Shown: positions 5,346 through 30,025 of the stretch, one piece after another
Layout of the letters: each line of letters starts with the position of its first letter
How positions within the stretch are numbered: the stretch's first letter is position 1
Notes under the pieces: model-generated
What the model saw: only the letters and a program-made list of their open reading frames with translations
The model's database searches: none
What the model was told of the DNA's origin: nothing
Program-made: the position numbers and the translations under genes
NCBI GenBank assembly: GCA_030527015.1
Contig: JAUNBR010000046.1
Coordinates: 1-34,900, forward strand
DNA length: 34,900 nt
Source: Planctomycetia bacterium
GTDB taxonomy: Bacteria > Planctomycetota > Planctomycetia > Pirellulales > Thermoguttaceae
Direction of reading: 5' to 3'

Positions 5346-7262
5346 TTAAGGGATGAGGATGATGCGGAAGCCGAGGTCGTTGCGGCAATTCGTCGGCGTA
5401 CGGCTGCGCCGAGCCGCCGAACGGCAGTTCTCCGCGTGGTCGATCCAGCTACCGCCACGAAACACTCGGATCGAGCCAGATGTTGGACCCGTCGGGTCGG
5501 TTACGGAACCGCTTGGGTAGTCGCCTTTCCAATCCGAACACCATTCCCATACGTTGCCGTGCATGTCGTACAGACCCCATGCGTTCGACTTCTTCTGACC
5601 CACTGCGTGAGTCGTTGAACCCGAATTGGAATCGTAACATCCCATGGAATTGAACATTGAGTTGAGCGAGAGTAATGATGCGAAATGCGAATTGGAATCG
5701 TACCATCCCATGGAATCCAAGGCTCCTGCGTACGCTCCAGTCGTGCCCGCGCGACATGCGTATTCCCACTGTGCTTCCGTCGGAAGCTGAATGTTTAAGC
5801 CGAGGTTACTCAGTTTCTGACAAAACTTCTGGCAGTCGTGCCAACTCACATTTTCCACAGGGAGATCGTCACCCTTGAAACGACTCGGATTATTTCCCAT
5901 CACGCTCTCCCACATCTCCTGTGTCACTTGTGTTTCCAGCATCCAGAAACCTTTTGTGAGCGTCACGCGGTGTTGCTTTTCGTCGTTATATCGCCCAGCT
6001 TCCGACGACGGACTGCCCATCATGAAACTTCCCGCCGGGCACCAACGAAACGCGAATTTCACGCCGTTTATCGTTTTTACCATGCGCACACCCGGTTTCG
6101 GATCTTTGGACGACCTCCGCTCTGCCTCCAGTTTCTCCTGCGCCTGGCGTTCCGCGTCTTCGTGTGCTTTTTTTTCCGCCATAAATCGTTCCCGTGCCAG
6201 ACGCTTCGCGTTTTCGCGAAGCTTTTTCATCTCTTCCTCCGCCTTCATTTTTTTGTAAAATTCTTCCGCAAGCTCCTCTACCGATTTGGTTTTCGGCGGC
6301 AGTGGCGGTGTGGGAATCACAAATGAAGGTGCGGCAGGGGCGGGTGCGGAAAGCGCCTTCACGAAGTCTACGCACGACGGAAATCGCTCTTTACGGTCTT
6401 TCGCTAAGGCTCTCTGTAAGGCTGAGTTGACGTGTGCCGGGACGTTCTTAATTTTATCGGGCGGGTCTTGAAGAACGCACAGGCGCAGCATTTCGGTGTT
6501 CGCCGCCATGAAGGGAAGGTGGCCGGAGTAAAGTTCGTACGCCACGGTCGCCAGGGCGTACTGGTCGGTGCGCGCGTCTTGCGTTCGGCCACGCCACTGT
6601 TCCGGCGGCATGTACGCCATCGTTCCGCTGGTCTTGACTTGCGATGTGGTGTGAAGTGTCATGCTGACTTGGATTTCTGCCGCAAGACCAAAATCGATTA
6701 GCTGCACACTGCGAATTGTCCCGTTGTCGGACTTTGGGAGAAATATATTTCCAGGCTTCACGTCACGGTGAATCACGCCCTGTTTGTGTGCGTAATCCAG
6801 CGCCACGGCAAGAGGTTTTAAGATCGGTAAAATCATCTCCTGACGAAAATTTTTCTGCTTCCGGAACTCGGCCAGCGTCATGCCTTTAAGCCACATCATC
6901 ACGATGTAATAGCCGAATTTCGCGTCCCTTTCCAGCGCATAAACCGGGCAGATGTACTGGTGGTTCAGCGCCTGAATGGTCTTGAACGTTTCCTTCACCT
7001 GGTACATCGCCGCCTCGTTGTGGCGAATCTCCTTGGGCACAAATTTCAGCGCGACGTTCCGTTCCCCCACCACATCAAACGCCTTCCAGACCACGCCCAT
7101 TCCGCCCTGACCGGCCTGATTTTCCAGTCGGTACTTCTCCGCCAAAATCATCCCCGAAACCAATTCCTGAAGCTCAGCGTCCATTTCGTAATCCGAATTT
7201 TCGTAATTGCCGAACGTATCTAAACTGTTCAAAGATAAATTTTGCTTGCTGTCGTCACTCAT
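5346..7262 (-). CDS. Ser/Thr protein kinase with FGE/C-type-lectin-like C-terminus (STK1)
   Basis: This 638-aa protein has a Hanks-type kinase domain at residues 44-305, with glycine loop GQGGMGVV 51-58, Lys73, catalytic HRDVKPGN 165-172, DFG 190-192 and PPE 219-221. A charged coiled coil (about 328-385) follows, then an FGE-sulfatase/SUMF1-like domain (395-638) with the ..RGGSW..CRSA..LGFR.. ending. I see no transmembrane helix, so the kinase appears cytoplasmic. The paired catalytic cysteines of true formylglycine-generating enzymes are not both present, so the domain is probably a ligand-binding lectin fold. Its last 90 codons contain the DGR-type variable region. A 22-residue segment is duplicated around 5623-5716. 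The start ATG overlaps the stop codon of the upstream FHA gene, indicating translational coupling. It is the last gene of the operon. Confidence 0.93.
   Translation of the reverse strand: MSDDSKQNLSLNSLDTFGNYENSDYEMDAELQELVSGMILAEKYRLENQAGQGGMGVVWKAFDVVGERNVALKFVPKEIRHNEAAMYQVKETFKTIQALNHQYICPVYALERDAKFGYYIVMMWLKGMTLAEFRKQKNFRQEMILPILKPLAVALDYAHKQGVIHRDVKPGNIFLPKSDNGTIRSVQLIDFGLAAEIQVSMTLHTTSQVKTSGTMAYMPPEQWRGRTQDARTDQYALATVAYELYSGHLPFMAANTEMLRLCVLQDPPDKIKNVPAHVNSALQRALAKDRKERFPSCVDFVKALSAPAPAAPSFVIPTPPLPPKTKSVEELAEEFYKKMKAEEEMKKLRENAKRLARERFMAEKKAHEDAERQAQEKLEAERRSSKDPKPGVRMVKTINGVKFAFRWCPAGSFMMGSPSSEAGRYNDEKQHRVTLTKGFWMLETQVTQEMWESVMGNNPSRFKGDDLPVENVSWHDCQKFCQKLSNLGLNIQLPTEAQWEYACRAGTTGAYAGALDSMGWYDSNSHFASLLSLNSMFNSMGCYDSNSGSTTHAVGQKKSNAWGLYDMHGNVWEWCSDWKGDYPSGSVTDPTGPTSGSIRVFRGGSWIDHAENCRSAARRSRTPTNCRNDLGFRIILIP
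5364..5482 (-). other. DGR-like variable region of STK1 with adjacent conserved anchor
   Basis: Aligned without gaps to 13142-13260, positions 5381-5482 differ at 21 sites, all in codon positions 1 or 2 and none in position 3. Codon pairs (STK1/STK2) include ATC/GGC, AGC/GGC, ATC/TAC, GAC/TAC, CAC/TAC, AAC/TTC, GCT/TAT, CGC/GGC, AAT/GAT and AAC/GAC. Bases 5364-5380 are identical in both copies (coding ACGACCTCGGCTTCCGC), in the place expected of an IMH-like anchor at the 3' edge of a DGR variable repeat. Past it, differences at all codon positions resume. Confidence 0.75.
5623..5716 (-). repeat. In-frame 66-bp-period duplication inside STK1
   Basis: A 28-bp segment at 5623-5650 recurs at 5689-5716 with one mismatch (GAATTGGAATCGTAACAT and GAATTGGAATCGTACCAT). 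The period is 66 bp, or 22 codons. The protein has SMGWYDSNS followed by SMGCYDSNS, where other FGE-like domains have a single WYDxNS motif. STK2 lacks the duplication. Confidence 0.85.
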
Positions 7263-8812
7263 TTTTTAATTTCTCCATGTTGTGGATTCAAAAATGTCGG
7301 ATAATCTTCCCATACGTCAAATTTCACGGAACCGATTTGAAACTTCATTCCCGGTTCCAGCCCCAGCAAATCGTCCTGGTATAATTGTTCGGAGCTGCCA
7401 TCGGCTTTTTCGTAATTCAACGCGCGGCGGTCATGATTCGTCATGCCGAAATGGTCGCCGCAAAAGTAGAATGTCACGTGGTTCGTTCGGATTCCACGCT
7501 CATTCAAATACATTACGTCGTTTTGCAAATTGCTTCCCAGCGTCACGCCACGAAGCAGGAAAAAATACTCCTCCTCTTCCGCAAACGGGTCTTTTTTCCA
7601 GTCGGGATGCCGTCCCCACTGTGTTTCCATCTTTGCAAATTCTATTTTGTGCTCATCAGAACATGATTCCAGAATATTTTTTCGGCCCGAGCAGTCAAAA
7701 TTCGCTTTCCGGCGTAAGCGCAGAACATCCACTCCCTGATTGTTTCCCAGGGACCATAATGTTTCACGATTCTCTTCATACATGATGTGCTGATTTATCA
7801 AGCGCACTTCCAAATCATCGATATGTGCCGAAAAGGCCTCCAGAAAAAGAGACGCAAATTGGGAAATCCGCATTTCCAGTTTTCCCCGCTTCACTTCCTC
7901 CCAGTCCAAAACGTTCAGATCTCCGCGAGATAACGAAATGATGTTTTCCGACGGCAGAAATCCTTGATGTGGGCGAATTTCCAGTCCCAGCGTGCTTAAA
8001 TCCTGAAAACTCATTCCCTCGGGAGCAAACATTATGATCGCGTGTTTCCGCGAAATGAAAAGGGAAAGATAATCTGAGGGAGAATTTCCTCCTGTGGATT
8101 TTCGATTAAATCGATACACCACATCACATTCCCTGCCTCGTCCCAGAAGAATCCTGTGGCGGGCGAAGAGGTGATACAAGCGAACGCGTCCGTTGGGCAT
8201 TATTGCCCGAAGCAAAAGTTTCCGTCGGGGTGCGGCAACAGGAAAATTCGGCATGGCGACCAGCGGAACCTGAAACAGATTCGTCGCGGTATTTTCTGTC
8301 TCATCGGTACGCTGAAGTCCGTCGGGAATGATACCTTCCGTTAAATTCACCAGGGCATCCCCCTGAGCAGAGATACGCACTTTGTCAAATTCCGACCAGT
8401 CCATGCGATGCGTGTTAATTAACGCGCCGTCGGAAGCCTCGATCACCACCTCCCGACGTCGGTCCGCGCTGACATGAAGCAGAACGGTCGTCCGAAACAG
8501 AAACGGACGTATCACTCCGGCGTCCCGTTCTCGAAACTCGGCCTCCAGCGTCAGTGCGTAGGCCGCATCCCCCACCGCGTTCTCTCGGGGCTTAATCGAC
8601 AAACGTTCGTGAAAAACCCAGGTGTGAGGCTCCATTTCGTGAACGTCCGGCGACACTTTCCAGTCGTCTCTGTTCAAACGCTCATCTAAATGAATCCGAA
8701 CGGTCGGAGGGGACTCCAACTGAATCCCCATCAGCGTAAATGTCGGGGAAAGCTGCGCGCCAAATTTCAGCTCTCCCGACCAGTCGATACGAAGCAGTAG
8801 TTTTTTTTCCAT
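7259..8812 (-). CDS. Protein with two FHA-like domains
   Basis: This is a 517-aa cytoplasmic protein. Residues 1-195 are beta-rich and unassigned. A first FHA domain spans about 198-316, with the phosphopeptide-binding signature LLGRGRECD (222-230) and SRKHA (254-258). A second, degenerate FHA-like domain spans about 416-502, with VTLGSNLQND and NHVTF. FHA domains bind phosphothreonine, so this is the natural reader of the kinases in the same operon. AAAGGAAA precedes the ATG. The gene starts 11 bases after the HTH gene and its stop codon overlaps the start of STK1. The last codons (HGEIKK-stop) are also present as a non-coding remnant upstream of STK2. The second FHA assignment is less certain because the usual Arg and Ser-x-x-His residues are not all present. 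Confidence 0.85.
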   Translation of the reverse strand: MEKKLLLRIDWSGELKFGAQLSPTFTLMGIQLESPPTVRIHLDERLNRDDWKVSPDVHEMEPHTWVFHERLSIKPRENAVGDAAYALTLEAEFRERDAGVIRPFLFRTTVLLHVSADRRREVVIEASDGALINTHRMDWSEFDKVRISAQGDALVNLTEGIIPDGLQRTDETENTATNLFQVPLVAMPNFPVAAPRRKLLLRAIMPNGRVRLYHLFARHRILLGRGRECDVVYRFNRKSTGGNSPSDYLSLFISRKHAIIMFAPEGMSFQDLSTLGLEIRPHQGFLPSENIISLSRGDLNVLDWEEVKRGKLEMRISQFASLFLEAFSAHIDDLEVRLINQHIMYEENRETLWSLGNNQGVDVLRLRRKANFDCSGRKNILESCSDEHKIEFAKMETQWGRHPDWKKDPFAEEEEYFFLLRGVTLGSNLQNDVMYLNERGIRTNHVTFYFCGDHFGMTNHDRRALNYEKADGSSEQLYQDDLLGLEPGMKFQIGSVKFDVWEDYPTFLNPQHGEIKK

Positions 8813-10946: not shown

Positions 10947-12269
10947 TTAACGAATGTGATAACGATTTTCCAATTGATTTCGCAGTATGGCCAGACTATT
11001 TTTCAGTTCCGCGCGGAAAGCCGGAAGTTCCAGCCCTTCTTGTTTTTTTAAGGCCGCTTCCACGTACTCTGCCGCGGTTATCGCCTGATTCATATTTTTC
11101 AGCAGCATCGGAATTCGCTCTTCCGCCACACGCAAGTCTTTCTTCCGAGCCGTCCATTCCGGCATCATCGACAGCAGGTCGTGAATCGTTTCCAATTCCC
11201 GTTCCAGAAGTCGAAACTCGGTCTGCACCCGAATATCCTCCGTCTGACGCCGCGCCGTGGTAAGTTCATCCTGAATGACCACAATTTTTTCAGCAAGAAA
11301 CGTGCGCAGACGACCATCCAGCCGAACGTTATTACTGAAGAACCACGCTTTTTTCGGACGCTGCGATTTACCGACCGTCACCACCGGGAAAGTTTCCTCC
11401 GTGATTTCCTCTCGCCGCGGCTGCGCTTCTTCATTTTCCAGACGAAGCCGAATCGCCAGCCCGTTCCAGTAGGAGGTGTCCAGCTCGCGTTGTCCCGCCG
11501 CATCCTCCGCCATCTGACGAATTGCCCGGACGCATTCCTGTGAGGTCATCTCATGGCGCAAAAGCAGCGCTCCCACTTCCTCCAGCTTCTCTTCCGTTTC
11601 GTCAGACGCCGGTAACCCTTCGTTTTTCAGCGTTTGCGTAAATCTCTGCCATTCCTCCGGTTTCTGAATCTTCTGCACCGTTTCGCACAATTCTTTGTCC
11701 ACCTCGTCGGTCGAGACGGGAGGTTCCTGCACCGTGTGGGTCTCAAACGGTGCAATTCCCGTGCAGCGAAAACCGTGCGAGGAGAGTAAAACACTGAATT
11801 TTGCCCGAAACGTTTCCAGCGCCGCGCCGCTCAACGAAATCAGCGCCTCCGGTTCCGTTCGCAGAACGTCCAGTAAACCGGAAAGCATGGATTGGAGCCA
11901 GTCCTTCCAATCGGTTTCCGACAGCTCGCGGCGCGATTCCAGAAAGGTGCCAAGTCCCATTTCCGGCTCAAAACGAATCTGCACGGTCGTCGCCACGGTC
12001 TGCCCCTTTGCCTGGCAGGGAAATTGCAGCGAAACCGACACATCCTCTTTCGGTATGCTCCAGAAAACGGTCGTTTCCGCAAAATCCGCCGTGGGCAGGC
12101 GATCCAGAACGTTGATCAGCCGTGCCCCGTCCATGACACAGACGCGCTCTCCTTCCGCCAATGTTTCCCCACGCGACAACTGCCGTGCCACAAGAGACGT
12201 CCGCGGCTTTTCTACTTTTGGGGTTGTCCCAAACAGCCATTGAAAAAAAGTTTTCGTTTTCTCAAACAT
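10947..12269 (-). CDS. Operon protein of unknown family, probably a divergent SPFH-like partner
   Basis: I do not recognise the family of this 440-aa protein. It begins with an aromatic amphipathic stretch (MFEKTKTFFQWLFG). Residues about 30-180 look like a decayed SPFH fold: beta strands with TTVQIRFEP, then helices with LSGLLDVLRTE and ALETFRAKFSVLLSSHGF, which match the SPFH pattern of a long helix followed by G-(F/I)-x-(C/F/I)-T. Residues 190-440 are mainly helical and charged, with a coiled coil near 315-375. The start has CAGGAG upstream. It begins 3 bases after the second ESCRT-III-like gene and ends 23 bases before the SPFH gene, so it is firmly in the operon. It may form hetero-oligomers with that SPFH protein. 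The fold assignment is by eye only. Confidence 0.85.
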   Translation of the reverse strand: MFEKTKTFFQWLFGTTPKVEKPRTSLVARQLSRGETLAEGERVCVMDGARLINVLDRLPTADFAETTVFWSIPKEDVSVSLQFPCQAKGQTVATTVQIRFEPEMGLGTFLESRRELSETDWKDWLQSMLSGLLDVLRTEPEALISLSGAALETFRAKFSVLLSSHGFRCTGIAPFETHTVQEPPVSTDEVDKELCETVQKIQKPEEWQRFTQTLKNEGLPASDETEEKLEEVGALLLRHEMTSQECVRAIRQMAEDAAGQRELDTSYWNGLAIRLRLENEEAQPRREEITEETFPVVTVGKSQRPKKAWFFSNNVRLDGRLRTFLAEKIVVIQDELTTARRQTEDIRVQTEFRLLERELETIHDLLSMMPEWTARKKDLRVAEERIPMLLKNMNQAITAAEYVEAALKKQEGLELPAFRAELKNSLAILRNQLENRYHIR

Positions 12270-12272
12270 AGG

Positions 12273-12935
12273 TTATTCTCCTGGATTTAAAAGTTTGTCG
12301 ACCAAACGAATTCCTTCGTCCGCTTTCTCTTGGAGGTCTTTTTCCAGATCCTCGATTCCCTGATCCGCTTTTTCGCCCAGATTCGCATCCCGCAGCGGAG
12401 CGGTCTGCTGATCCAATTCCTTCATCAATTCGTCCAGACTGCTGTCCGACGTTTCTGGAAACAACTGTTCCAGCCCATTTTCCTGCGCCTGAAGCACCTC
12501 CACGAGTTTTTCGTTGCTCAGTGTTCCGTTAACGACCGATTCATTGATCACGCGTTCAATATCCGACACATCCATCTCGTTCAGCAGCGTCAGAACGCCC
12601 GCGCGTTCGTAAAACGCCTGATTTTTCTTGATCATCAGAAAATTATTAACGACGCGTAGGTTCTGATTCACTCGCGTAATCCAGCCCTCCACCTGCCGCT
12701 GCTGCGTCCGTACGTCCTGGATTTTCCGAGCGATGCTCTTCTTCTGAAAATCCTTCGTCGCGCTGGCATACTCGCTTTTCAGCTGCTCCTCATCTCGCTG
12801 AAGCTTTTCCCGCTCCTTCTCCACCTTGTTCAGCTCTGTCTGGCAAGTGATCCGTTCCCGATTCAGGTCGTCCACCGACACATCCGCCAACGTTTTTTGT
12901 TTCTGTGTTCCACGAAAGAAATCCCAAAATCCCAT
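12273..12935 (-). CDS. ESCRT-III/PspA-superfamily-like protein (second copy)
   Basis: This is a 220-aa, almost all-helical protein. It begins with the amphipathic MGFWDFFRGT, a possible membrane-inserting N-terminal helix like those of Snf7 and PspA/Vipp1 proteins. It has a long charged hairpin (about 20-105, with EKEREKLQRDEEQLKSEY and the turn near KDFQKKSIARK), a middle helix at 110-150, and an acidic C-terminal tail (160-220) with two helices. Length, basic N-terminal half and acidic C-terminal half match eukaryotic CHMP proteins. I chose ATG 12935, which has AAAAGGAG nine bases upstream. An in-frame start 14 codons earlier lacks support. The next gene follows after 3 bases. The alternative is a plain PspA/IM30-type coiled-coil protein. 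Family confidence is moderate, gene confidence high. Confidence 0.72.
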   Translation of the reverse strand: MGFWDFFRGTQKQKTLADVSVDDLNRERITCQTELNKVEKEREKLQRDEEQLKSEYASATKDFQKKSIARKIQDVRTQQRQVEGWITRVNQNLRVVNNFLMIKKNQAFYERAGVLTLLNEMDVSDIERVINESVVNGTLSNEKLVEVLQAQENGLEQLFPETSDSSLDELMKELDQQTAPLRDANLGEKADQGIEDLEKDLQEKADEGIRLVDKLLNPGE

Positions 12936-13123: not shown

Positions 13124-15151
13124 CTAAGGGACGAAAACAGGGCGGAAGCCGAGGTCGTCGCCGCGATCCGTCGGCGTACCGCTGCCCCGATACGCCGAAC
13201 GGCAGAACCTCGCGTAGTAGTACCAGCCACCGCCACGATACACTCGGCCCGAGCCAGATCTTGGCCCTGTAGGGTCGGTTACGGAACCACTTGGGTAGTC
13301 GCCATACCAGTCCGCGCACCATTCCCATACGTTACCGTGCATGTCGTATAAACCCCACGCGTTCGGCTTCTTCTGACCCACTGCGCGAGTTGTCCAATCC
13401 GAATTTTTAGCATACCAACCGACTTCGTCGAGATTCTCGCAAATTTCATATGTACTTGTAATATTTTTCCCATTATTGAGACTCGTCGTCGTGCCCGCGC
13501 GGCAAGCGTACTCCCACTGCGCTTCCGTCGGAAGTTGAATGTTTAAGCCGAGGTTACGCAGTTTCTGACAAAACTTCTGGCAGTCGTGCCAACTCACATT
13601 TTCCACAGGGAGATCGTCACCCTCAAAATCACTCGGATTATTTCCCATCACGCTTTGCCACATTTCTTGTGTCACTTGTGTTTCCAGCATCCAGAAACCC
13701 TTGGTAAGCGTCACGTGGTGCTGCTTTTCGTCTTTATATCGGCCCAATTCATCCTCTGGACTGCCCATCATGAAACTCCCCGCCGGGCACCAACGAAACG
13801 CGAATTGCACGCCGTTTATCGTCTTCACCATGCGATCGCCCGGTTTCGGATCTTTGGACAACCTCCGCTCTGTTCTGATGAATTGCAGAAAATCCTTCGG
13901 TCGCCATTTCGTCACAAGTTCATTTAGCCTCTTGATTTCGTCGCAAATTGTTTTCATCGGAGCGGCCGTCTGCAGCATTCCGTCCTCGACGTATTCCCGA
14001 CGCGTCCTTTCCTTTTGCGTTAAAAGTTGTTGGCAGAACTCCGCGATTCGGTTCGCTTGCGCCTGCATCTCCTCCATCTTCGCCGTCGGGCGGCGTCCCT
14101 CTGGAGCGTAGTCTTTGAGCAGTTCCTCGTACTCCGACGCCAGCTCCCAAAAATGAGATTCCTCCTCGGGCAAAAAATCCTCCAGCGACTTTTCCGGAAA
14201 GGATTCCGTTCTCAATACTGGCGTCGCAGCTTGTTCGGACAGCGCGTTTACAAAGTCCGTGCACGACGCGAATCGCTCTTTACGGTCTTTCGCTAAGGCT
14301 TTTTGTAAGGCGGAATTAACGTGTGCCGGGACGCTTTTGATTTCATCCGGCGGGTCTTGAAGAACGCACAGGCGCAGCATTTCGGTGTTCGCAGCCATGA
14401 AGGGAAGGTGGCCGGAATAGAGTTCGTACGCCACGGTCGCAAGAGCGTACTGGTCGGTGCGCGCGTCTTGTGTGCGGCCACGCCACTGCTCGGGCGGCAT
14501 GTACGCCATGGTCCCGCTGGTCTTGACTTGTGAAGTGGTGTGAAGTGTCATGCTGACTTGGATTTCTGCCGCAAGACCAAAATCGATTAGCTGCACACTG
14601 CGAATTGTCCCGTTGTCGGACTTTGGGAGAAATATATTTCCAGGCTTCACGTCACGGTGAATCACGCCCTGTTTGTGTGCGTAATCCAGCGCCACGGCAA
14701 GAGGTTTTAAGATCGGTAAAATCATCTCCTGACGAAAATTTTTCTGCTTCCGGAACTCGGCCAGCGTCATGCCTTTAAGCCACATCATCACGATGTAATA
14801 GCCGAATTTCGCGTCCCTTTCCAGCGCATAAACCGGGCAGATGTACTGGTGGTTCAGCGCCTGAATGGTCTTGAACGTTTCCTTCACCTGGTACATCGCC
14901 GCCTCGTTGTGGCGAATCTCCTTGGGCACAAATTTCAGCGCGACGTTCCGTTCCCCCACCACATCAAACGCCTTCCAGACCACGCCCATTCCGCCCTGAC
15001 CGGCCTGATTTTCCAGTCGGTACTTCTCCGCCAAAATCATCCCCGAAACCAATTCCTGAAGCTCAGCGTCCATTTCGTAATCCGAATTTTCGTAATTGCC
15101 GAACGTATCTAAACTGTTCAAAGATAAATTTTGCTTGCTGTCGTCACTCAT
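13124..15151 (-). CDS. Ser/Thr protein kinase with FGE/C-type-lectin-like C-terminus (STK2)
   Basis: This 675-aa protein has the same architecture as STK1. The kinase domain (about 44-305) is nearly identical at the protein level, with the same Lys73, HRDVKPGN and DFG motifs. From about residue 305 the linker is unrelated to that of STK1: it is helical and includes EEESHFWELASEYEELLKD. The FGE-like domain (about 435-675) is again similar. It has no transmembrane helix. The last 90 codons hold the hypervariable region. DNA from the start codon to about 14535 is identical to STK1. The upstream bases repeat the last codons of the FHA gene although no FHA gene is there, so STK2 looks like the derived copy. 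It is placed between the two ESCRT-III-like genes and flanked by direct repeats. Confidence 0.93.
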   Translation of the reverse strand: MSDDSKQNLSLNSLDTFGNYENSDYEMDAELQELVSGMILAEKYRLENQAGQGGMGVVWKAFDVVGERNVALKFVPKEIRHNEAAMYQVKETFKTIQALNHQYICPVYALERDAKFGYYIVMMWLKGMTLAEFRKQKNFRQEMILPILKPLAVALDYAHKQGVIHRDVKPGNIFLPKSDNGTIRSVQLIDFGLAAEIQVSMTLHTTSQVKTSGTMAYMPPEQWRGRTQDARTDQYALATVAYELYSGHLPFMAANTEMLRLCVLQDPPDEIKSVPAHVNSALQKALAKDRKERFASCTDFVNALSEQAATPVLRTESFPEKSLEDFLPEEESHFWELASEYEELLKDYAPEGRRPTAKMEEMQAQANRIAEFCQQLLTQKERTRREYVEDGMLQTAAPMKTICDEIKRLNELVTKWRPKDFLQFIRTERRLSKDPKPGDRMVKTINGVQFAFRWCPAGSFMMGSPEDELGRYKDEKQHHVTLTKGFWMLETQVTQEMWQSVMGNNPSDFEGDDLPVENVSWHDCQKFCQKLRNLGLNIQLPTEAQWEYACRAGTTTSLNNGKNITSTYEICENLDEVGWYAKNSDWTTRAVGQKKPNAWGLYDMHGNVWEWCADWYGDYPSGSVTDPTGPRSGSGRVYRGGGWYYYARFCRSAYRGSGTPTDRGDDLGFRPVFVP
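13142..13260 (-). other. DGR-like variable region of STK2 with adjacent conserved anchor
   Basis: This is the counterpart of 5364-5482. Variable sites lie at 13159-13260 and the conserved 17-bp anchor at 13142-13158. The encoded segment has the GGxW-xxx-A-xx-CRSA-x-R-xxx-TPT-xxxx-DLGFR layout typical of DGR-diversified C-type-lectin domains. Tyr codons (TAC, TAT) are frequent at variable positions here, as expected when AAC or AAT template codons are mutated at their adenines. Confidence 0.75.
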
Positions 15152-15435: not shown

Positions 15436-16032
15436 TTATTCCTTCTCTCGCTGTGCCAGTTCCGCCTCGATCGCTTTCAGTTGTGCGTCGATCTCTGAGC
15501 TGGAATCGTCCGACGATTCGGTCATCATCTTCTCCACCACCTCGCCGGAAATGCCCTGCATCGCCGCGTCGCTGGTCAGCGTGTCACTCGTCTCGGTGAT
15601 TCGATCCAGCACATTGTTCATCATCTCCTCCATCGAAAGATTCTGCTGAAGAATGTTGTCCAAATCCTGTATCATCTGACCATCGTTAAACTCTTTGAAT
15701 ACTTCGTTTACCGATTTTGCCATCGCCTTCATTCCCTGGCCAAACTCGCCAAACAGACGCGCCTGATCCCGAATTTGCAGGACAATCTCAAAATGCAAAA
15801 GCTGGCTGTCGATCGCACGACGCTTCATGATCGTCTGCGCCACCAAATTGCTGGCTATCTTGAAGTTCTTCGTGTCGTTCTCCTTCTTCGCGCGGATCGC
15901 CATCTCCATGAACCGTCGCTCATCCTTCCGTAAACGGTTGCTCATCTGACGCTGCTTGGAAATTGCCGTGCGAATCGTCATTTCTCGTTCTTGTTCACGC
16001 TGTCGTTTCGATTTAAATAAATTGCCGAACAT
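15436..16032 (-). CDS. ESCRT-III (Snf7/CHMP-like) protein
   Basis: This is a 198-aa all-helical protein resembling Vps2/CHMP2. It starts with MFGNLFKSKR, like the short N-terminal segment of CHMPs. A basic helical hairpin spans 14-95 (MSNRLRKDERRFMEMAIRAK, then KNFKIASNLVAQTIMKRRA), matching the CHMP pattern of A-K-x6-KIxAKxLVRxRR in order and spacing. Then come FGQGMKAMAKSVNEVFKEFN (97-116), reminiscent of the CHMP2 MAxAMKGVTKAM segment, and NLSMEEMMNNVLD (131-143), like the CHMP2 segment MDMKEEMMNDAID. An acidic linker follows. A C-terminal helix (IDAQLKAIEAEL, 181-192) is placed like a MIM1 motif. The ATG has CGGAGGAA upstream and is 29 bases after the Vps4-like gene. In this family, polymers deform or cut membranes and are disassembled by Vps4. 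Confidence 0.82.
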   Translation of the reverse strand: MFGNLFKSKRQREQEREMTIRTAISKQRQMSNRLRKDERRFMEMAIRAKKENDTKNFKIASNLVAQTIMKRRAIDSQLLHFEIVLQIRDQARLFGEFGQGMKAMAKSVNEVFKEFNDGQMIQDLDNILQQNLSMEEMMNNVLDRITETSDTLTSDAAMQGISGEVVEKMMTESSDDSSSEIDAQLKAIEAELAQREKE

Positions 16033-16061
16033 GTTTTTCCTCCGTATGGTTAAAAATGAAG

Positions 16062-17201
16062 TTATCCCTGAATTTCCTTCCGATATTTCTCAAACTCCGC
16101 TAGATCTTTCTCCGTCACGCTGGGCGACGTTTCCGCCAAGGCAGTCTGAACATCCTCCGCCTGAATCGGAACCTGCGTCCCCATTTGAACTGCCCGCACA
16201 AAGGCCGGATCGATGATGCGATACACCAGACCGTTGATGTCCGCACCGCTGTAACCCTCCGTTTTCTCAACCAGTTCGGAAAAATTAATCGTCTCCACCC
16301 CAGGAAGCTCTCCCAGCTTTTGACGAAGCAAAAATTCTCGTGCCGCCGCGTCGGGAAGCGGAATGTAAATTTTCTCGCCGAACCGACCCGTCCGCACCGC
16401 CGCGGGATCCAAATCCCACGGACGATTCGTCGCTCCGATGAGCAGTAACTCTTCCGAACCTTTGGAAACACCATCCACCTGCGCCAAAAATTCCGGAATC
16501 ACCCGATTCATCACCGTGGAATTCCCACCCCGTTTGCACAAAAGTGCCTCCGCCTCGTCGAAAAAGAGGACCGACGGAGCTTTTTCCCGCGCTTTTTGGA
16601 ACAAATCCCGAAGATTCTGCTCCGCGTCTCCCACCCATTTACTTAAAATGGAGCTGGACTGCACGGTGAAAAACGGCAGATTCATTTCCCCGGCAATCGC
16701 CTTGGCCATCATCGTTTTGCCCGTTCCCGGAGGACCGTACATCATGATTCCCGCCCCCGCACGTCGATTGTAGGCCGCGGCAATTTCTGGATTCCGAAGC
16801 GGAAAAATGACTCGCTGCTGGATCAGCTCCTTGACCGAATCCAGCCCGGCAATATCCGCAAACGTTACGTCCGGACGCTCCGTAAGTTCCCACCGCGACG
16901 AATCTTCCGACTTCTCAGGCTCCCTCGACGCGGGAACGCTTTTCGATTTCTTTGCGTCGGAAACCGGCTTTTTCGCAGGTTTTGAGGAAGTTTGCCCGGT
17001 TTCCAACTGCAAGGCTAAATCCTGGACACGCCGGGCACGCGTCAGCCAATTTTGCTGTGCCGCTGGATCCGGGGCTTCTTTCGCAAGTTGATAAAGCAAT
17101 CGCGCAGATTTCAAAAAAGAAATCCTCGCCGTCTCGTTGTGCCCCGCATGAAAGGCGTCCATTCCTTTTTGAAAATGAAAAAAGTACATATCAGCTGGCA
17201 T
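16062..17201 (-). CDS. Vps4-like AAA ATPase with MIT-like N-terminal domain
   Basis: This 379-aa protein has full Vps4 architecture. Residues 1-67 form a MIT-like three-helix bundle (FQKGMDAFHAGHNETARISF, then LTRARRVQDLALQLE), and 70-105 is a linker. The AAA domain of the meiotic/Vps4 clade starts at DIAGLDSVKE (116-125). Walker A GPPGTGKT is at 156-163, the pore loop SKWVGDAE at 187-194, Walker B VLFFDEAE at 211-218, sensor 1 GATNRPW at 256-262, Arg fingers near R270 and R273, then EKIYIPLPD. A small helical domain EGYSGADI (315-322) follows. The C-terminal helix SPSVTEKDLAEFEKYRKEI closely matches the Vps4 ending. The Vps4 beta-domain insertion is absent. Walker B is DEAE rather than DEID. 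The start has AAAGGAGA. It is the first gene of the cluster, directly before the ESCRT-III gene. Confidence 0.92.
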   Translation of the reverse strand: MPADMYFFHFQKGMDAFHAGHNETARISFLKSARLLYQLAKEAPDPAAQQNWLTRARRVQDLALQLETGQTSSKPAKKPVSDAKKSKSVPASREPEKSEDSSRWELTERPDVTFADIAGLDSVKELIQQRVIFPLRNPEIAAAYNRRAGAGIMMYGPPGTGKTMMAKAIAGEMNLPFFTVQSSSILSKWVGDAEQNLRDLFQKAREKAPSVLFFDEAEALLCKRGGNSTVMNRVIPEFLAQVDGVSKGSEELLLIGATNRPWDLDPAAVRTGRFGEKIYIPLPDAAAREFLLRQKLGELPGVETINFSELVEKTEGYSGADINGLVYRIIDPAFVRAVQMGTQVPIQAEDVQTALAETSPSVTEKDLAEFEKYRKEIQG

Positions 17202-17670: not shown

Positions 17671-17780
17671 TTTATTGCCGATACACGATAAAATTACTCG
17701 CTGTATCGGCATTTTTGTTCTGCTGAAAATGCCGGGCTGTTAGATCTGCAGAAAACGGAAATTGAAAGTGGAATCAGTAT
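17671..17780 (+). repeat. Dispersed palindromic element, copy 3
   Basis: It has CCGATACACGATAAAATTAC, then CGGCATTTTTGTTCTGCTG, AAAATGCCGGG and GGAAATTGAAAGTGGAATC ending in AGTAT. It is the first copy to the right of the ESCRT cluster. Confidence 0.75.
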
Positions 17781-17827
17781 TCGCCGACGACTGCCACTCC
17801 CCCAGGAGCCGTGGGCGGACGGAGGGT

Positions 17828-17931
17828 GCAGTCCGTAGTTTCGGAGAGAAAGAGGAGATTAAAAGAACAGCGCGCGCATGATTAATCCGGGCGTAGTGCG
17901 TAGTTTCGGAGAGCAAGAGTGCTCTCCCTCC
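17828..17931 (+). repeat. Two copies of the GTAGTTTCGG-hairpin repeat
   Basis: GCAGTCCGTAGTTTCGGAGAG at 17828-17848 and GTGCGTAGTTTCGG at 17896-17909. The second runs into the perfect hairpin GGAGAGCA-AGAG-TGCTCTCC (17908-17927). The same unit is downstream of STK1 in the opposite orientation. Confidence 0.65.
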
Positions 17932-17995
17932 AGGTTACGCAGCTTCTGGCAAAATTCCAGGCAGTCGTCCTAACTCACTTTCTCCACAGGGAGAT
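17932..17995 (-). pseudogene. Decayed fragment of an FGE-like domain gene
   Basis: About 64 bases match the part of STK1 and STK2 that encodes the segment around ENVSWHDCQKFCQKL. Shared blocks include AGGTTACGCAG, GGCAGTCGT and TCCACAGGGAGAT. Scattered substitutions and the absence of any flanking domain show that it is a relic of a third copy. Confidence 0.75.
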
Positions 17996-18149
17996 TTATA
18001 TTCATACTATTTTGGATTTTCACTTTTAAAACCGCTGCTGGAACGATGTACCACGGCGTCTGTGTTCTCGTGAAAATGGAAATTTAAACGAGAACCGGTA
18101 TGAAGGAAAATTAGTATGAAGTGGAATTTGTTTGGCAGAAAGCGCGGTT

Positions 18150-18377
18150 TTATGAGTGTACCTGGGTGTGGTTTTGTAATACCAGTTCGGCGTCTTTACA
18201 GATGCGGCGGAGTGTTTCCTGGGCTAACTGTTTATAGTAATATCGTGAAAGGTTTCCACAGATGCATAATCCGTCGGCGGTTTCCTGGATGGTCAGTTGC
18301 CGTAATTCTTCGATCGGGCTTTTTCGTAACATACTGGCGGCGCGTAGGGCAGCGTCTGAAACTAAAATGGTTGACAT
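18150..18377 (-). CDS. Small BON-like domain protein
   Basis: This is a 75-aa protein. From residue 20 (SPIEELRQLTIQETADGLCI) to the end it follows the pattern of planctomycetal small BON-like proteins: a short helix, a strand with x-x-x-D-G-x-x-I-x-G, then LSRYYYKQLAQETLRRI and a final strand VLQN. BON domains often bind phospholipid or mediate envelope association, but this protein has no signal peptide, so its location is unclear. AAGGAGAA lies eight bases before the ATG and strongly supports the gene. It is monocistronic, on the same strand as the cluster but about 950 bp upstream of it. Confidence 0.75.
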   Translation of the reverse strand: MSTILVSDAALRAASMLRKSPIEELRQLTIQETADGLCICGNLSRYYYKQLAQETLRRICKDAELVLQNHTQVHS

Positions 18378-18424
18378 GACCGTTCTCCTTCATTATGTTA
18401 AAAGGTAAGAGTAAAAAGGGAATG

Positions 18425-18529
18425 TATACTGGTTCCAATTTAAAATTTCGTTTTGTGCGGCTCTAAAAGCAGGCTTTTTCAGCGAAGCAAAAAGCCGGTG
18501 AAGCTAAATTTTATAATGTATCGGGTATA
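18425..18529 (-). repeat. Dispersed palindromic element, copy 4
   Basis: It starts TATACTGGTTCCAATTTAAA and ends ATGTATCGGGTATAA, with core GCTTTTTCAGCGAAGC. It lies just upstream of the BON-like gene. Confidence 0.8.
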
Positions 18530-18579
18530 ATATACCTGTCTGACAGAAATTCACGTTTTAGGGCAGGAAAAAATACTTT

Positions 18580-18679
18580 TATACTCGATGCACGATAAAA
18601 TTCTGCTTTTCCGGCATTTCGCTGAAAATGCTTGCGTTCAGAGACGCAGAAAATGGAAATTTAAAGTGGAATCAGTATA
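18580..18679 (+). repeat. Dispersed palindromic element, copy 5
   Basis: It starts TATACTCGATGCACGATAAA and ends TTAAAGTGGAATCAGTATA. It is only about 50 bp from copy 4 and in the opposite orientation. Confidence 0.8.
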
Positions 18680-18725
18680 TGTAATTTTATGTTCAGTGCA
18701 AAATATTTTTGCTTTCCGCTGATTT

Positions 18726-18829
18726 TATACCCGATAATGATAAAATTCCGATTTTCCGACTTTTTGCGTCGCACGAAAATGCCTGCGTTCAGAGGCGCAG
18801 AAAATGGAAAATTAAAGTAAAGCCAGGAT
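18726..18829 (+). repeat. Dispersed palindromic element, copy 6
   Basis: It starts TATACCCGATAATGATAAAA. The core has GAAAATGCCTGCGTTCAG, and the right arm GAAAATTAAAGTAAAGCCAG is slightly decayed. Confidence 0.75.
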
Positions 18830-19045
18830 GTGATGCACGATAAACTCTTACATAAAATGGAAACTGGTACCAGAGTATAAAAAAGAAAATTCGGAAAGAA
18901 AATTAAATTGCCGCTGTCCTATTTAGTATATTTTTAAGGTCAAGCGTTTTTAAAATCCATGTTTTTAGAATGGATTTTGTGCGATTAATTATTTGGTGAT
19001 TCGCGTCACCTTTAAATAAAGATTCATTCTTCACACGTTATTTTT

Positions 19046-19151
19046 TATATCCGATCCACGATAAAATTCCGTGTTCTCGGTATTTTGCGTCGCACGAAAA
19101 AGCCTGCTTCGAGAGGCGCAGAAGACGGAAATTTAAGGTGGAACCAGTATA
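19046..19151 (+). repeat. Dispersed palindromic element, copy 7
   Basis: It starts TATATCCGATCCACGATAAA and ends TTTAAGGTGGAACCAGTATA. The sequence between copies 6 and 7 shows no gene. Confidence 0.75.
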
Positions 19152-21734: not shown

Positions 21735-21853
21735 AGACACTATGAATTTCTGCTTCTCTTGTCTGCCGACAGGCCAGTATTTTGCTTCCTGCCAGCCTAA
21801 AATGCCTGCTTTTAGAGCCGCACAAAACGGAAAGTTAAAGTGAAACCAGTATA
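21735..21853 (+). repeat. Dispersed palindromic element, copy 10, with nested palindrome
   Basis: The right half (AAAATGCCTGC, AGAGCCGCACAAAACGG, AGTGAAACCAGTATA) is clear. The left half contains the extra inverted repeat CTGTC-or-TGTCTGCCGACAGGCC near 21760-21776. Confidence 0.65.
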
Positions 21854-22454
21854 ACTAAAAAATATCTGATTTTCTGTTCGTATAAACAGTTGTCGGTCTG
21901 CCCGATTAAAATGTTAGGTACGAACTGAGATTTAAGGTAAAATTCGGTATATGATACGGGTAATATCTATACATATGAATGTGTGAGTGAAATTCAGAAA
22001 CAGAACCGGCAAAAATAAATGATGAGGTTCTGTTTTAGGTTTCTGTTTTACACAGTTATGAAAACTGGTGTTATTAAATTCCGAAGAAACATAAATTCAT
22101 AATCGTGCCTGGTATAAAAACTAATAATATAATAATATAAGGAACCTTTCTCATTACGTTTTTTATTCTCTAAAAGTTTCTTTTGACATGAGATTCCTTG
22201 GAGGGGAAATAATCATTTTATATCTGAAACATTAAAAAATGATTCACGTTTAATATTTCTGTTTCGCAGGAATACGGCCTTCTGGAATCACGTGAAATGG
22301 AAATAAAATTAATCAGAAGATACCTCATTACGATTATTATTTCTCATTACTCCAAAAAAATCAAGAGAAACTTCGTGTAATTTACTTAAAAAATAAAAAA
22401 TATTTTATACGGGATGTAATGTTTATGTATCTGAAACACTAAAATTTTAATTTT
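21854..22454. other. AT-rich spacer with no recognised feature
   Basis: About 600 bases of AT-rich sequence upstream of the second DUF1559 gene. I see no ORF of convincing composition, no RNA gene and no good promoter. Confidence 0.5.
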
Positions 22455-22556
22455 GTACCCGATATACTATAAAATTCTCTTTTCCGACATTTTTGTTTCG
22501 CTGAAAATGCCTGCTCTCAGAACTGCGTAAAACGGGAATTTAAGGAGAATCTGTCT
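22455..22556 (+). repeat. Dispersed palindromic element, copy 11
   Basis: It starts GTACCCGATATACTATAAAA. The core has TTTCGCTGAAAATGCC and the right arm is GGGAATTTAAGGAGAATC. Confidence 0.75.
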
Positions 22557-22660
22557 AAAGATTCTGAATGCTGAAAATATTCTCTGAATAAACTAAACAA
22601 AAATTAATTTTGAAATAAGTACAAAGAATGGTGTATATTTTGTACACAGCACGTATAATG

Positions 22661-22785
22661 TTATCCCTGATGCACTATAAAATTCCGTTTCTTCTGTCTG
22701 CCGACAGGCCGGCCAGGATTTATGCTTCGCTGAAAATGTCTGCTTTAGAGCCGCGCAAAAAGGAAATTTAAACGAGAATCAGTAC
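22661..22785 (+). repeat. Dispersed palindromic element, copy 12, with nested palindrome
   Basis: It starts TTATCCCTGATGCACTATAA and ends TTTAAACGAGAATCAGTAC. A second palindrome, TGTCTGCCGACAGGCCGG, is inserted in the left arm near 22696-22713, making this copy about 20 bp longer than usual. Confidence 0.75.
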
Positions 22786-22974
22786 AAGAGGAAAATAGGA
22801 AAATATATAAATTTTGGCCTTTCATTTTTTAGAAAAATATAATATGGTCATATGTTATTAAAGTTTTTTTATTTTCATTTTGTGCGGTTATGATGAAGAA
22901 GTTCGTATGAATGGTGTGAAAACAAAAAAATGAAATTTTGTAGATTCGGATATAAAATTTATTGTGACGGTTTA

Positions 22975-23096
22975 TTTGTGCCCGATGTGCTATAAATTTT
23001 TGCTTCTCCGGCATTTTTGTTTTGCTAAAAATGCATGTTTTCAGAACCGTCTTTTAGAACCGTAAAAAATGGAAATTTAAACGAGAACCAGGTATA
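22975..23096 (+). repeat. Dispersed palindromic element, copy 13
   Basis: It starts GTGCCCGATGTGCTATAAAT and ends TTTAAACGAGAACCAGGTAT. Part of the right arm (AGAACCGT) is duplicated. It ends about 28 bp before the DUF1571 gene and may overlap its promoter. Confidence 0.75.
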
Positions 23097-24425: not shown

Positions 24426-24474
24426 TTTTTTAAGTGTGATGTGATTTTTCTTTTTGAAGGCATTTCTGAAGATA

Positions 24475-24591
24475 TATACGGGTTCCATTTTAAATTTTCG
24501 TGTTATGTGGCTCTGAAAATGGGCATTTTCAGTGAAGCAAAAAAGCCGGGGAAGCGGAATTTTGCGGAATTTTATAGTGTGTCGTGTATAA
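24475..24591 (-). repeat. Dispersed palindromic element, copy 14
   Basis: It starts TATACGGGTTCCATTTTAAA and ends TTTTATAGTGTGTCGTGTAT, with a small internal duplication of GCGGAATTTT. It lies downstream of the DUF1571 gene. Confidence 0.75.
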
Positions 24592-24823
24592 GAAATGTCG
24601 TTTTTTATGACTCAGTAAAACTAAAATTATAGGTGGGATCTGAAATTTTGATTCCACGAAACATGAATTTATATCTTACGTGCAGTAAATTCTTTTTTTC
24701 TATTTTTGTATCTAAGAATAACACTTCTGTGGCTGCAAAAATTTATATAGAATAATTCTAAAAAGTATCTGAAAAAACGGGAATGATTAGCGTGCGCCCA
24801 GGGTGTCTGAAAATTTGTATTTT

Positions 24824-24928
24824 TGTACTGATTCTTCTTTAAATTTCAGTTTTGTGTGGCTCTGAAGCAGGTATTTTCAGCGAAGAAAAATGCCGGTGAG
24901 GCGAAAATTTATAGTGCATCAAGTATAA
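24824..24928 (-). repeat. Dispersed palindromic element, copy 15
   Basis: It starts GTACTGATTCTTCTTTAAAT. The core is TATTTTCAGCGAAGAAAAATG, and it ends ATAGTGCATCAAGTATAAAA. Confidence 0.75.
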
Positions 24929-25255
24929 AATGATTTTGTTTTGATTATATGTGGGTAAATTTAAATTTTTAGAGTAAAAATTTTATGTTCCTTGGAAAAT
25001 TCGTGTTGTGCAAAACAGGAAATTCTTATATATTATCATTAAGGTGATATACGGGGTATTATATGCTGATATATTCATGATTTTCACTTCTCTGAATTTT
25101 TACCATACGTGTGGGGTACTGGGTTTTGTGACTGTAAAAACTGAAATTTAAAACAGAATCATGTGGTAAATAATTTTCTGAGTGGTTTTAAATAGGCTGA
25201 AAAACCTGCGTACAGGGATGTGTGAACGGAAATCGAAAGTGAGTAATTTTGAGAG

Positions 25256-25385
25256 TTATACGGACTTTACTTTTAAGTCTGTTTTGTGCGGCTTTAAAAG
25301 CAGGTATGTTTTCAGTGAAACAAAAAAACATGCCTTTTTGTCGGCGGACAAAAGAAGCGAAAAATTATAGTGTATCGGATGTAAA
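25256..25385 (-). repeat. Dispersed palindromic element, copy 16, with nested palindrome
   Basis: The arms are TTATACGGACTTTACTTTTA and AATTATAGTGTATCGGATGT. The extra inverted repeat CTTTTTGTCGGCGGACAAAA lies near 25335-25354. It ends about 65 bp before the chosen dnaG start. The rest of 24426-25451 shows no gene. Confidence 0.7.
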
Positions 25386-27710: not shown

Positions 27711-27809
27711 TTTCACTTTAATTTCCGTTTTGTGTGACTCTTAAAGCAGGCATTTTCAGTGAAGTAAAATGCCGGAGAATCGGAAATTTATAGTGTATCG
27801 GATATGAAA
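27703..27809 (-). repeat. Dispersed palindromic element, copy 17, overlapping the dnaG stop
   Basis: It starts TTATACTGATTTCACTTTAA, so that TAC TGA, the last Tyr codon and stop of dnaG, lies within its terminal repeat. It ends AAATTTATAGTGTATCGGAT. Confidence 0.85.
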
Positions 27810-27965
27810 AATATTTAATATAAATTTAAAACGAAGAAAAGACTGGAGCGTAAAAGGAGGCCGGTGGCAAATTAAATTTTTGACTGGATGTGATGGATCT
27901 TTTTATGAGAGTAAAGCGTCTGGAAAGAATAAATTTAGTGTGTCTGGTAAATCTTTTTATTATTC

Positions 27966-30017: not shown

Positions 30018-30025
30018 AAACGTTT

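What the first reader, a model, noticed from the sequence alone, without database searches (positions are those of the whole stretch)
15436..17201. A bacterial ESCRT-III gene next to a MIT-Vps4-like AAA ATPase
Seen: two adjacent genes 29 bp apart. One encodes an AAA protein with a MIT-like helical N-terminus, meiotic-clade AAA motifs and a Vps4-type C-terminal helix. The other encodes a 198-aa all-helical protein whose segments follow CHMP2/Vps2 in order (basic helical hairpin, MKAMAKS, MEEMMN, acidic tail, terminal helix). Known: in eukaryotes and archaea, ESCRT-III and Vps4 together remodel and cut membranes, with MIT binding a C-terminal MIM motif. Bacterial ESCRT-III superfamily members are usually PspA or Vipp1 without a Vps4. 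Inference: a complete polymer-plus-disassemblase pair in a bacterium, notable in Planctomycetota with their elaborate internal membranes.
Basis: partly seen in the sequence, partly recalled or inferred. Interest (0 to 1): 0.95.

Follow-up and report, generated by a model that had tools for sequence, protein, structure and literature searches.

The report
Bacterial ESCRT-III with Vps4-like ATPase
A planctomycete bacterium carries, side by side, a gene from a family related to the ESCRT-III proteins that build membrane-cutting filaments and a gene for a Vps4-like ATPase; the two are predicted to bend or cut membranes together as their relatives do in archaea and in our own cells, although a recent survey and a review say that bacteria lack this pair.

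Summary
In detail: a 198-aa helical protein (15436-16032, -) and a 379-aa AAA protein (16062-17201, -) lie 29 bp apart. The small protein alone has no Snf7 match, but 44 of 48 members of its wider family do (E<=1, best 5.5e-9); 35 helical control proteins from the same clusters show none (25 of 28 families printed in one). The family profile matches an archaeal ESCRT-III protein over its length (hhalign 99.4%). A MIM1-like end is in 43 of 48 members; the window's own tail keeps its three hydrophobic positions but not the acidic one. The ATPase's N-terminal profile finds a solved MIT domain (E 9e-8). In an AAA tree the ATPase lies in a bacterial clade sister to Vps4/spastin, outside Cdc48, not inside Vps4; in 14 related clusters another ATPase type does group with archaeal Vps4 (100/99). 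SPFH-like, FHA-like and kinase genes join the cluster, as in published archaeal ESCRT loci. The family is in 56 of 392 sampled Planctomycetota genomes. Most likely a divergent, archaeal-type ESCRT-III/Vps4-like membrane-remodelling module; membrane action is inferred.

The parts
15436..16032 (-). ESCRT-III (Snf7-type) family protein, 198 aa, divergent Planctomycetota branch
   Evidence: 36 close homologues; profile search to 338 homologues (candidates were capped), 36 of the 120 listed carrying Pfam Snf7; 44 of 48 chosen family members match Snf7; CdvB2 is the best PDB profile hit, E 0.002
15466..15501 (-). MIM1-like C-terminal helix of the ESCRT-III protein (residues 178-189); here without the acidic residue at 178
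   Evidence: Hydrophobic positions 181/185/188 kept in 47 of 48 rows or more; full pattern in 43 of 48 against a shuffled mean of 2.1; the window's own tail and its closest kin are among the rows without the full pattern
16062..17201 (-). MIT-like + AAA ATPase, 379 aa, Vps4-sister type
   Evidence: AAA 1.5e-40; model pLDDT 88; nearest solved folds yeast and archaeal Vps4, spastin, FIGL1 and p97 D2, tied; tree
17001..17201 (-). MIT-like N-terminal three-helix domain (residues 1-67)
   Evidence: Profile of 26 N-termini finds PDB 2mpk at E 9.1e-8, the MIT domain of Saprolegnia chitin synthase 1
16068..16112 (-). C-terminal helix (residues 364-378) within the Vps4_C match
   Evidence: not diagnostic of Vps4
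13124..15151 (-). Ser/Thr protein kinase fused to an FGE-sulfatase-like domain
   Evidence: Pkinase 1.5e-36, FGE-sulfatase 8.9e-45
12276..12935 (-). Helical protein c11 (220 aa from the ATG), candidate second ESCRT-III-like subunit or partner
   Evidence: Joined by hhalign with c4 and c8; the joint profile finds two proteins of the Thermococcus ESCRT plasmid cluster (E 1.2e-19 and 4.5e-18 in a small ORF set); no Snf7 match shown
10947..12269 (-). 440-aa protein c25, no Pfam match at E<=0.01, conserved in L038
9046..10923 (-). SPFH-like protein with C-terminal zinc ribbon
   Evidence: Band_7_1 1.7e-4 (21.7 bits, below its cut-off of 24), Zn_Ribbon_1 2.3e-7
7259..8812 (-). FHA-like protein
   Evidence: FHA 7.2e-4, 20.4 bits, just below the cut-off of 20.7
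5346..7262 (-). Second Ser/Thr kinase-FGE protein, near copy of the one at 13124-15151
   Evidence: Pkinase 4.8e-36, FGE-sulfatase 4.6e-46; DNA repeats D8-D10 at 81-90% identity

Best explanation
The two genes encode a divergent protein of a Snf7-type ESCRT-III family and an MIT-like AAA ATPase of a bacterial clade sister to Vps4, and the ATPase would likely pull ESCRT-III subunits out of a membrane-bound filament by their C-terminal MIM1-like helix. Shown: family membership of the small protein, the MIT-like N-terminus by profile, an intact AAA core with the pore-loop motif KWVG (tryptophan in all 71 aligned rows), conserved linkage, and the MIM1-like end of the family (partial in the window's own protein). 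Inferred: the basic helical hairpin polymerises on the inner face of a membrane; the MIT domain binds the MIM1-like helix; the ATPase hexamer threads subunits through its pore, which remodels the polymer and bends, cuts or seals the membrane. The SPFH-like protein probably marks the membrane site, and the kinases and FHA-like protein probably gate recruitment by phosphorylation, as proposed in print for archaeal ESCRT loci with such accessory genes. The task is more likely vesicle or cargo sorting or membrane repair than cell division.
For: Snf7 matches in 44 of 48 family members, three of ten tested singly above the curated cut-off; controls: 0 of 15 and none shown of 20 (25 of 28 families printed). 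Archaeal ESCRT-III of Thermococcus peptonophilus: hhalign 96% with the close family, 99.4% with the wide one; tblastn of family member P0213, 31% identity, E 6e-15. MIM1-like end of the family. MIT-like profile. Tree: this ATPase type is sister to a clade of Vps4, CdvC and spastin (together 100/95), and another cluster ATPase type in 14 loci groups with archaeal plasmid Vps4-like ATPases (100/99); one clade of all bacterial ATPases is rejected, p-AU 0.0004, the group named after the tree was seen. Clusters hold both genes in 19 of 21 cases. Archaeal clusters with kinase, PP2C and AAA; SPFH-zinc ribbon, FHA and kinase genes in published archaeal ESCRT loci.
Against: The window's own small protein gives no Snf7 match singly, and none of the 65 listed homologues nearest the profile carries the Pfam tag. 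The window's own tail lacks the full MIM1-like pattern: serine stands at the acidic position; in the family the usual arginine is glycine in 36 of 48. The wide profile's best PDB hits are designed repeat proteins, with CHMP1B at E 0.15. The structure model is only moderately confident (pTM 0.49); Foldseek puts CdvB first but at E 0.02 with low TM-scores, and VIA puts BAR domains first. The CHMP2A score test is not specific: the control families A6 and A7 also beat their shuffles (29.4 and 26.7). The ATPase is not inside Vps4. On ten single N-termini Pfam MIT reached only E 0.007 and 0.052, while TPR_2 matched seven (best 0.0011), the window's own only TPR_2 at 0.099; all below cut-off. No experiment bears on membranes.
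Confidence: 0.74

Rival explanations
1. The pair is a cell-division machine, like archaeal Cdv, that stands in for FtsZ.
For: The window's genome has no FtsZ match and neither do 58 other carriers (0 of 58). Archaeal Cdv uses ESCRT-III and Vps4 for division.
Against: FtsZ matches are rare in the whole phylum sample (10 of 384, none over the cut-off), whereas only 56 of 392 sampled genomes carry this family. So it is not the general division machine, and its presence does not track FtsZ loss. The kinase, FHA-like and SPFH-like partners point to sorting.
Confidence: 0.1
2. The small protein is a helical coiled coil that the AAA protein unfolds, as a soluble chaperone pair with no membrane role, and the ATPase N-terminus is TPR-like rather than MIT.
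For: The window protein alone matches no family usefully; structure matches are weak; TPR_2 scores better than MIT on single N-termini, 7 of 10 against 2 of 10.
Against: Family-level Snf7 signal with controls that lack it; homology to an archaeal ESCRT-III cluster; MIM1-like end in most of the family; MIT profile hit at E 9e-8 over 61 residues; linked SPFH-like protein.
Confidence: 0.11
3. The small protein is a PspA/Vipp1-type membrane-stress protein that has recruited an ATPase.
For: PspA_IM30 has no match in the window's genome, so the role may be free; PspA belongs to the same superfamily.
Against: PspA_IM30 is not among the 25 of 51 families printed for 48 members, so at most one member matches it, while Snf7 has 44. 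A recalled E. coli PspA scores at shuffle level. 24 of 58 carriers have a separate PspA over the cut-off.
Confidence: 0.04

Closest known systems
Archaeal 'Main', Halo_FHA and Meth_adaptin ESCRT systems (Makarova et al. 2024, PMC10936438, section 5 read whole, other passages)
   Same: ESCRT-III plus MIT-AAA ATPase, with Ser/Thr kinase, phosphatase or FHA genes, and in Meth_adaptin an SPFH protein with zinc ribbon. The Thermococcus peptonophilus cluster shares the ESCRT-III family, the c4/c8/c11 family (two copies) and a kinase with the window.
   Different: The host is a bacterium; the window's ATPase is a Vps4-sister type; the kinases carry FGE-sulfatase-like domains. Adaptin-like proteins were not searched for. 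[quoted passage not shown]
Crenarchaeal CdvB/CdvC
   Same: Snf7-type polymer and MIT-AAA ATPase. CdvB2 is the best PDB profile hit of the close family, and CdvB/CdvB2 are the top Foldseek hits, at weak E.
   Different: The accessory genes differ, and CdvA was not searched for. The family is patchy and unlikely to be the general division machine. The ATPases of the two are apart in the tree.
Bacterial PspA/Vipp1 and Vps4-like transfers (Ravi et al. 2024, PMC11237479, passages read)
   Same: Reports bacterial PspA/Snf7-clade genes near AAA+ ATPases and transfers of VPS4-like ATPases to bacteria.
   Different: There the transferred ATPase is said to have snf7 displaced by a TPR/6TM gene; here a Snf7-type gene is present and conserved in the ATPase's cluster. 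The held main text has 0 occurrences of 'planctomycet'.
Eukaryotic ESCRT-III/VPS4
   Same: Segments in the order of CHMP2 (weak), MIM1-like end in the family, MIT-AAA architecture.
   Different: The MIM1-like motif lacks the conserved arginine (recalled). Only seven residues (341-347) lie between the helices where the eukaryotic beta-domain insert would sit (the insert is recalled).

Membership tests
ESCRT-III (Snf7) | Sequence homology to the Snf7 family | tested here: met
   At family level: 44 of 48 members at E<=1, best 5.5e-9; 36 of 120 listed homologues carry PF03357. The window protein alone: no match.
ESCRT-III (Snf7) | Core of basic helical hairpin, then shorter helices and an acidic C-terminal part | tested here: inconclusive
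   Predicted helices in this order, pLDDT 73, pTM 0.49; Foldseek top six are CdvB/CdvB2 but E 0.02-0.1; BAR and other helical folds score higher in VIA.
ESCRT-III (Snf7) | C-terminal MIT-interaction motif (MIM1 consensus recalled) | tested here: inconclusive
   Pattern in 43 of 48 (shuffled mean 2.1), but the arginine position is glycine in 36 of 48, and the window's own tail has only the three hydrophobic positions; binding untested.
ESCRT-III (Snf7) | Polymerises on membranes | not testable with these tools
   Needs purified protein and liposomes.
PspA/Vipp1 | Match to PspA_IM30 | tested here: not met
   At most 1 of 48 members (PF04012 not among the 25 of 51 families printed).
Vps4 | N-terminal MIT domain (criterion i of PMC10936438) | tested here: met
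   Profile of 26 N-termini to 2mpk, E 9.1e-8; the next hit is a designed protein at 8.8e-4. Single sequences do not reach the Pfam MIT cut-off, and TPR_2 scores better on most.
Vps4 | ESCRT genes in the neighbourhood (criterion ii of PMC10936438) | tested here: met
   ESCRT-III-family gene 29 bp away; 19 of 21 clusters hold both.
Vps4 | Lies inside the Vps4 clade of the AAA tree | tested here: not met
   Window ATPase is in a 27-row bacterial clade (100/99), sister (joint clade 100/95) to the clade with Vps4, CdvC and spastin; the other cluster ATPase type lies inside that clade with archaeal plasmid ATPases (100/99). So this ATPase is filed as Vps4-sister, not Vps4.
Vps4 | Vps4_C C-terminal helix | tested here: met
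   23.3 bits over the 21.3 cut-off, 70 of 71 rows match at E<=0.1; shared with Cdc48 D2.
Cdc48/p97 | Groups with Cdc48 D1 or D2 | tested here: not met
   Outside both; its clade with Vps4 has 100/95. NCBIfam scores for CDC48 and CdvC are equal, both below cut-off.

The most novel reading that the evidence does not exclude
A whole archaeal-type, phosphorylation-gated ESCRT system passed between archaea and bacteria as a cluster. Planctomycetota then gave one ESCRT-III polymer two dedicated ATPases, a true Vps4 and a new Vps4-sister. This module sorts cargo and cuts vesicles in the bacteria best known for elaborate internal membranes, so ESCRT-III/Vps4 membrane scission exists in all three domains of life.
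Probability: 0.42. Interest if true: 0.95.

Novelty: new variant of a known kind. Interest (0 to 1): 0.86.

Why it matters
[quoted passage not shown] A conserved bacterial pair, with closer Vps4 relatives in sister clusters, changes that distribution. It offers bacterial proteins in which polymer-plus-disassemblase mechanics can be tested, and a concrete candidate for how some Planctomycetota shape internal membranes. The accessory genes of archaeal loci (kinase, FHA-like, SPFH-like) make the idea of phosphorylation-gated ESCRT sorting testable outside archaea.

Tried and rejected
A gene fusion of AAA and ESCRT-III in L028 (one open frame) was rejected: the frame runs through unknown bases, a scaffold gap. 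L006 (E 8.5e-4, 33% over query residues 83-160) is dropped as a likely chance match; the family and ATPase profiles find nothing in that locus. A replacement of FtsZ was rejected as an inference, because FtsZ is rare phylum-wide. A simple replacement of PspA was rejected, because 24 of 58 carriers have both. The c3/c9 family as further ESCRT-III: no Snf7 match in 15, nothing convincing in the PDB, hhalign 8% for c3. The c4/c8/c11 family: no Snf7 match shown for 20 (three one-member families with E above 0.5 are not printed), nothing in the PDB, hhalign 88% to the ESCRT-III family; kept as a candidate only. The CHMP2A test proved unspecific, since A6 and A7 also beat their shuffles. Viral contigs: 43 pattern stretches, none a relative. 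Phage records: none. The first gene caller picked wrong frames in high-G+C genomes and was replaced. Katanin and fidgetin were not in the tree. A defence role (IteA model 128 bits against a cut-off of 510) was not pursued. VIA's second look lists BAR, seryl-tRNA synthetase, CHMP4B and Vipp1 rows at similar Z, so it decides nothing; the absence of an MIT row means nothing, as the AAA domain filled that list.
Full report
The observation. Two ORFs on the - strand, 15436-16032 (198 aa) and 16062-17201 (379 aa), lie 29 bases apart. AlphaFold2 gives the small protein five helices (9-50, 54-111, 118-158, 163-174, 177-197; mean pLDDT 73, pTM 0.49). It gives the large one a confident N-terminal three-helix bundle (2-18, 22-41, 46-67), a low-confidence linker, an AAA core and a C-terminal helix (mean pLDDT 88).

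The small protein. Alone it matches nothing useful in Pfam, NCBIfam or the PDB. It has 36 close homologues. A profile of 36 rows (A1) finds one PDB sequence below E 0.01, the archaeal ESCRT-III CdvB2, at E 0.002. A wider profile of 17 rows (A2) finds 338 homologues among capped candidates. Of the 120 listed, 36 carry Pfam Snf7, all among the last 55; none of the first 65, the window's own included, carries it. In a 48-row sample that I chose by hand (A4), 44 match Snf7 at E<=1 (best 5.5e-9) and at most one matches PspA_IM30. Of the 36 close rows, 16 match at E<=0.1. Of ten scanned singly, three exceed the curated cut-off (32.2, 35.2 and 28.1 bits against 27.3), six match below it, and P0007 has no Snf7 match. 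As a control, other small helical proteins from the same gene clusters give no Snf7 match: 0 of 15, and none shown of 20 (25 of 28 families printed, so at most one match with E above 0.5). Against a recalled human CHMP2A the wide profile scores 33.1 (20 shuffles, maximum 15.6), in the same order of segments; against a recalled E. coli PspA it stays at shuffle level. This test is weak: the narrow profile gives 22.6 against 17.3, and the two control families also beat their shuffles (29.4 against 16.2, 26.7 against 18.3). Also not in favour: the wide profile's best PDB hits are designed repeat proteins (best E 0.0021), with CHMP1B at 0.15 and CdvB2 at 0.5. Foldseek lists CdvB and CdvB2 as the top six but at E 0.02-0.1 and low TM-scores. 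The second aligner puts BAR domains first.

The C-terminal end. Positions 181 and 185 are I/V and L/M in all 48 rows, and 188 is I, L or V in 47 of 48, with aspartate at 178 in 43. This is the spacing of the MIM1 motif (recalled: D/E-x-x-L-x-x-R-L-x-x-L). The pattern occurs in the last 35 residues of 43 of 48 rows (shuffled mean 2.1, maximum 7) and 31 of 36 close rows (shuffled mean 1.8, maximum 7). The arginine of MIM1 is replaced, by glycine in 36 of 48. The window's own protein and its nearest kin (P0002, P0004, P0006, P0007) keep the hydrophobic positions but are the five close rows without the full pattern; the window has serine at 178.

Tree of the ATPases. 71 AAA cores were placed by IQ-TREE, rooted on two FtsH-like proteins of the own genome. 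Cdc48 D1 and D2 branch off next. A clade of 51 (100/95) then splits in two. One side (99/94) holds CdvC, yeast and human Vps4, spastin, three archaeal plasmid ATPases, and the upstream ATPases of 14 Planctomycetota clusters; the last two groups together have 100/99. The other side (100/99) is bacterial: the downstream ATPases of 11 clusters, the window's ATPase and its relatives. One row, L040's upstream ATPase, is a long branch. Holding all bacterial ATPases as one clade is rejected (p-AU 0.0004), a group that I named after seeing the tree. So the window's ATPase is a sister of Vps4, and closer Vps4 relatives occur beside the same ESCRT-III family elsewhere in the phylum. The only other matches at E<=1e-10 in the own genome are two AAA proteins at 38-39% identity (FtsH is my reading).

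The cluster. From 58 other carrier genomes I took 20 longer stretches, chosen for contig length. With the window this makes 21 clusters. ESCRT-III is in 21, and an ATPase of these types in 19: on both sides of the ESCRT-III gene in eight, upstream only in six, downstream only in three, and in the window and L038 the Vps4-sister type lies upstream (in L038 with five called genes between). The two without it (L039, L052) have the ESCRT-III gene near a contig end. In the window the run on the - strand is ATPase, ESCRT-III, kinase-FGE, helical protein c11, a 440-aa protein, SPFH-like with zinc ribbon, FHA-like, kinase-FGE. A published survey of archaeal ESCRT loci describes Ser/Thr kinases, phosphatases, an FHA family and an SPFH protein with zinc ribbon as partners (PMC10936438, section 5 read whole). 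A tblastn of family member P0213 over plasmids finds two records: a Chloroflexota plasmid (Candidatus Chlorohelix, 36%, E 4e-24) and an archaeal one (Thermococcus peptonophilus, 31%, E 6e-15). The archaeal cluster is kinase, AAA, PP2C, ESCRT-III. Its ESCRT-III protein aligns to the family at 99.4% (wide) and 96.0% (narrow) and matches Snf7 at 4.2e-4, below cut-off. Its two small helical proteins match the joint c4/c8/c11 profile (E 1.2e-19, 4.5e-18 in a small ORF set). Its 607-aa protein resembles cluster protein c6 (81%). The Chlorohelix gene has FHA and kinase neighbours but no annotated ATPase within 10 kb.

Distribution. Own-order sample: 5 of 196, own genome included, one of them (L006) doubtful. 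Class sample with the narrow profile: 2 of 397, own included. Phylum sample with the wide profile: 56 of 392, own included. The one scan of named genome contigs gave one Planctomycetia MAG. Other phyla were not sampled beyond plasmids, phages and viral contigs. The own genome (93% complete) has no PspA_IM30 and no FtsZ match. Among 58 other carriers, FtsZ is in none and PspA is over its cut-off in 24 (29 at E<=0.001). Across the phylum sample FtsZ matches in 10 of 384, none over the cut-off, so its absence says nothing about this cluster.

What is in print. Searches (open-access PMC only, listings) and the passages that I opened show no report of a Snf7-type gene with a Vps4-like ATPase in Planctomycetota or Chloroflexota; not every listed paper was opened. 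[quoted passage not shown] PMC7615534 says that bacteria lack a clear Vps4 (passage). The passages seen of PMC7618577 name Vipp1 for bacteria, and those of PMC9192718 PspA and Vipp1. Passages of PMC3349469 and PMC9871819 place Snf7 in archaea; the held part of PMC7203096, under half of that text, has none of the terms. The nearest precedent is PMC11237479 (passages): it reports VPS4-like transfers to bacteria in which snf7 is displaced, and some bacterial Snf7-clade genes with a transmembrane segment near AAA+ ATPases. So parts of this were foreseen; the conserved pair and its archaeal-type cluster were not found described.

Mechanism. Shown: family membership, MIT-like and (in most of the family) MIM1-like ends, intact ATPase motifs, conserved linkage. 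Inferred: filament formation on a membrane, MIT-MIM binding, ATP-driven subunit extraction, phosphorylation gating through kinases and the FHA-like protein, membrane placement by the SPFH-like protein. I favour sorting, vesiculation or repair over division for the reasons above. Direction of transfer between archaea and bacteria is not settled.

Noticed in passing
window 5346-7262 and 13124-15151: Two near-copy Ser/Thr kinase-FGE genes (DNA repeats D8-D10, 81-90% identical) bracket the c11, 440-aa, SPFH-like and FHA-like genes, as if a duplication framed the block.
   Followed up: partly
window, intergenic stretches, e.g. 17673-19150, 21738-23094, 24474-25383, 27695-28064, 30023-30355, 32769-33121: Many dispersed diverged repeats of about 30-110 nt in both orientations, mostly between genes (families D1-D15 and inverted pairs); nature unknown.
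   Followed up: no
window 1-286: A repeat at 86-base steps: three copies of 114 bases, 86-100% identical (D4).
   Followed up: no
window 3183-4646: A leucine-rich-repeat protein (LRR_6 4.9e-18) next to the cluster.
   Followed up: no
L041, L042, L043, L044, L049, L050, L051, L053 and other clusters: Other Planctomycetota clusters carry conserved partners not called in the window: c6 (some with a MerR-like N-terminus by eye; C-terminal part like the 607-aa protein of the Thermococcus cluster), c3/c9, and c5 (about 650 aa, SPFH-like by eye, no Pfam match in the one scanned).
   Followed up: partly
L061 10001-10579: A Chloroflexota plasmid carries the ESCRT-III family gene with kinase and FHA neighbours and beta-propeller proteins, but no annotated ATPase within 10 kb.
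   Followed up: partly
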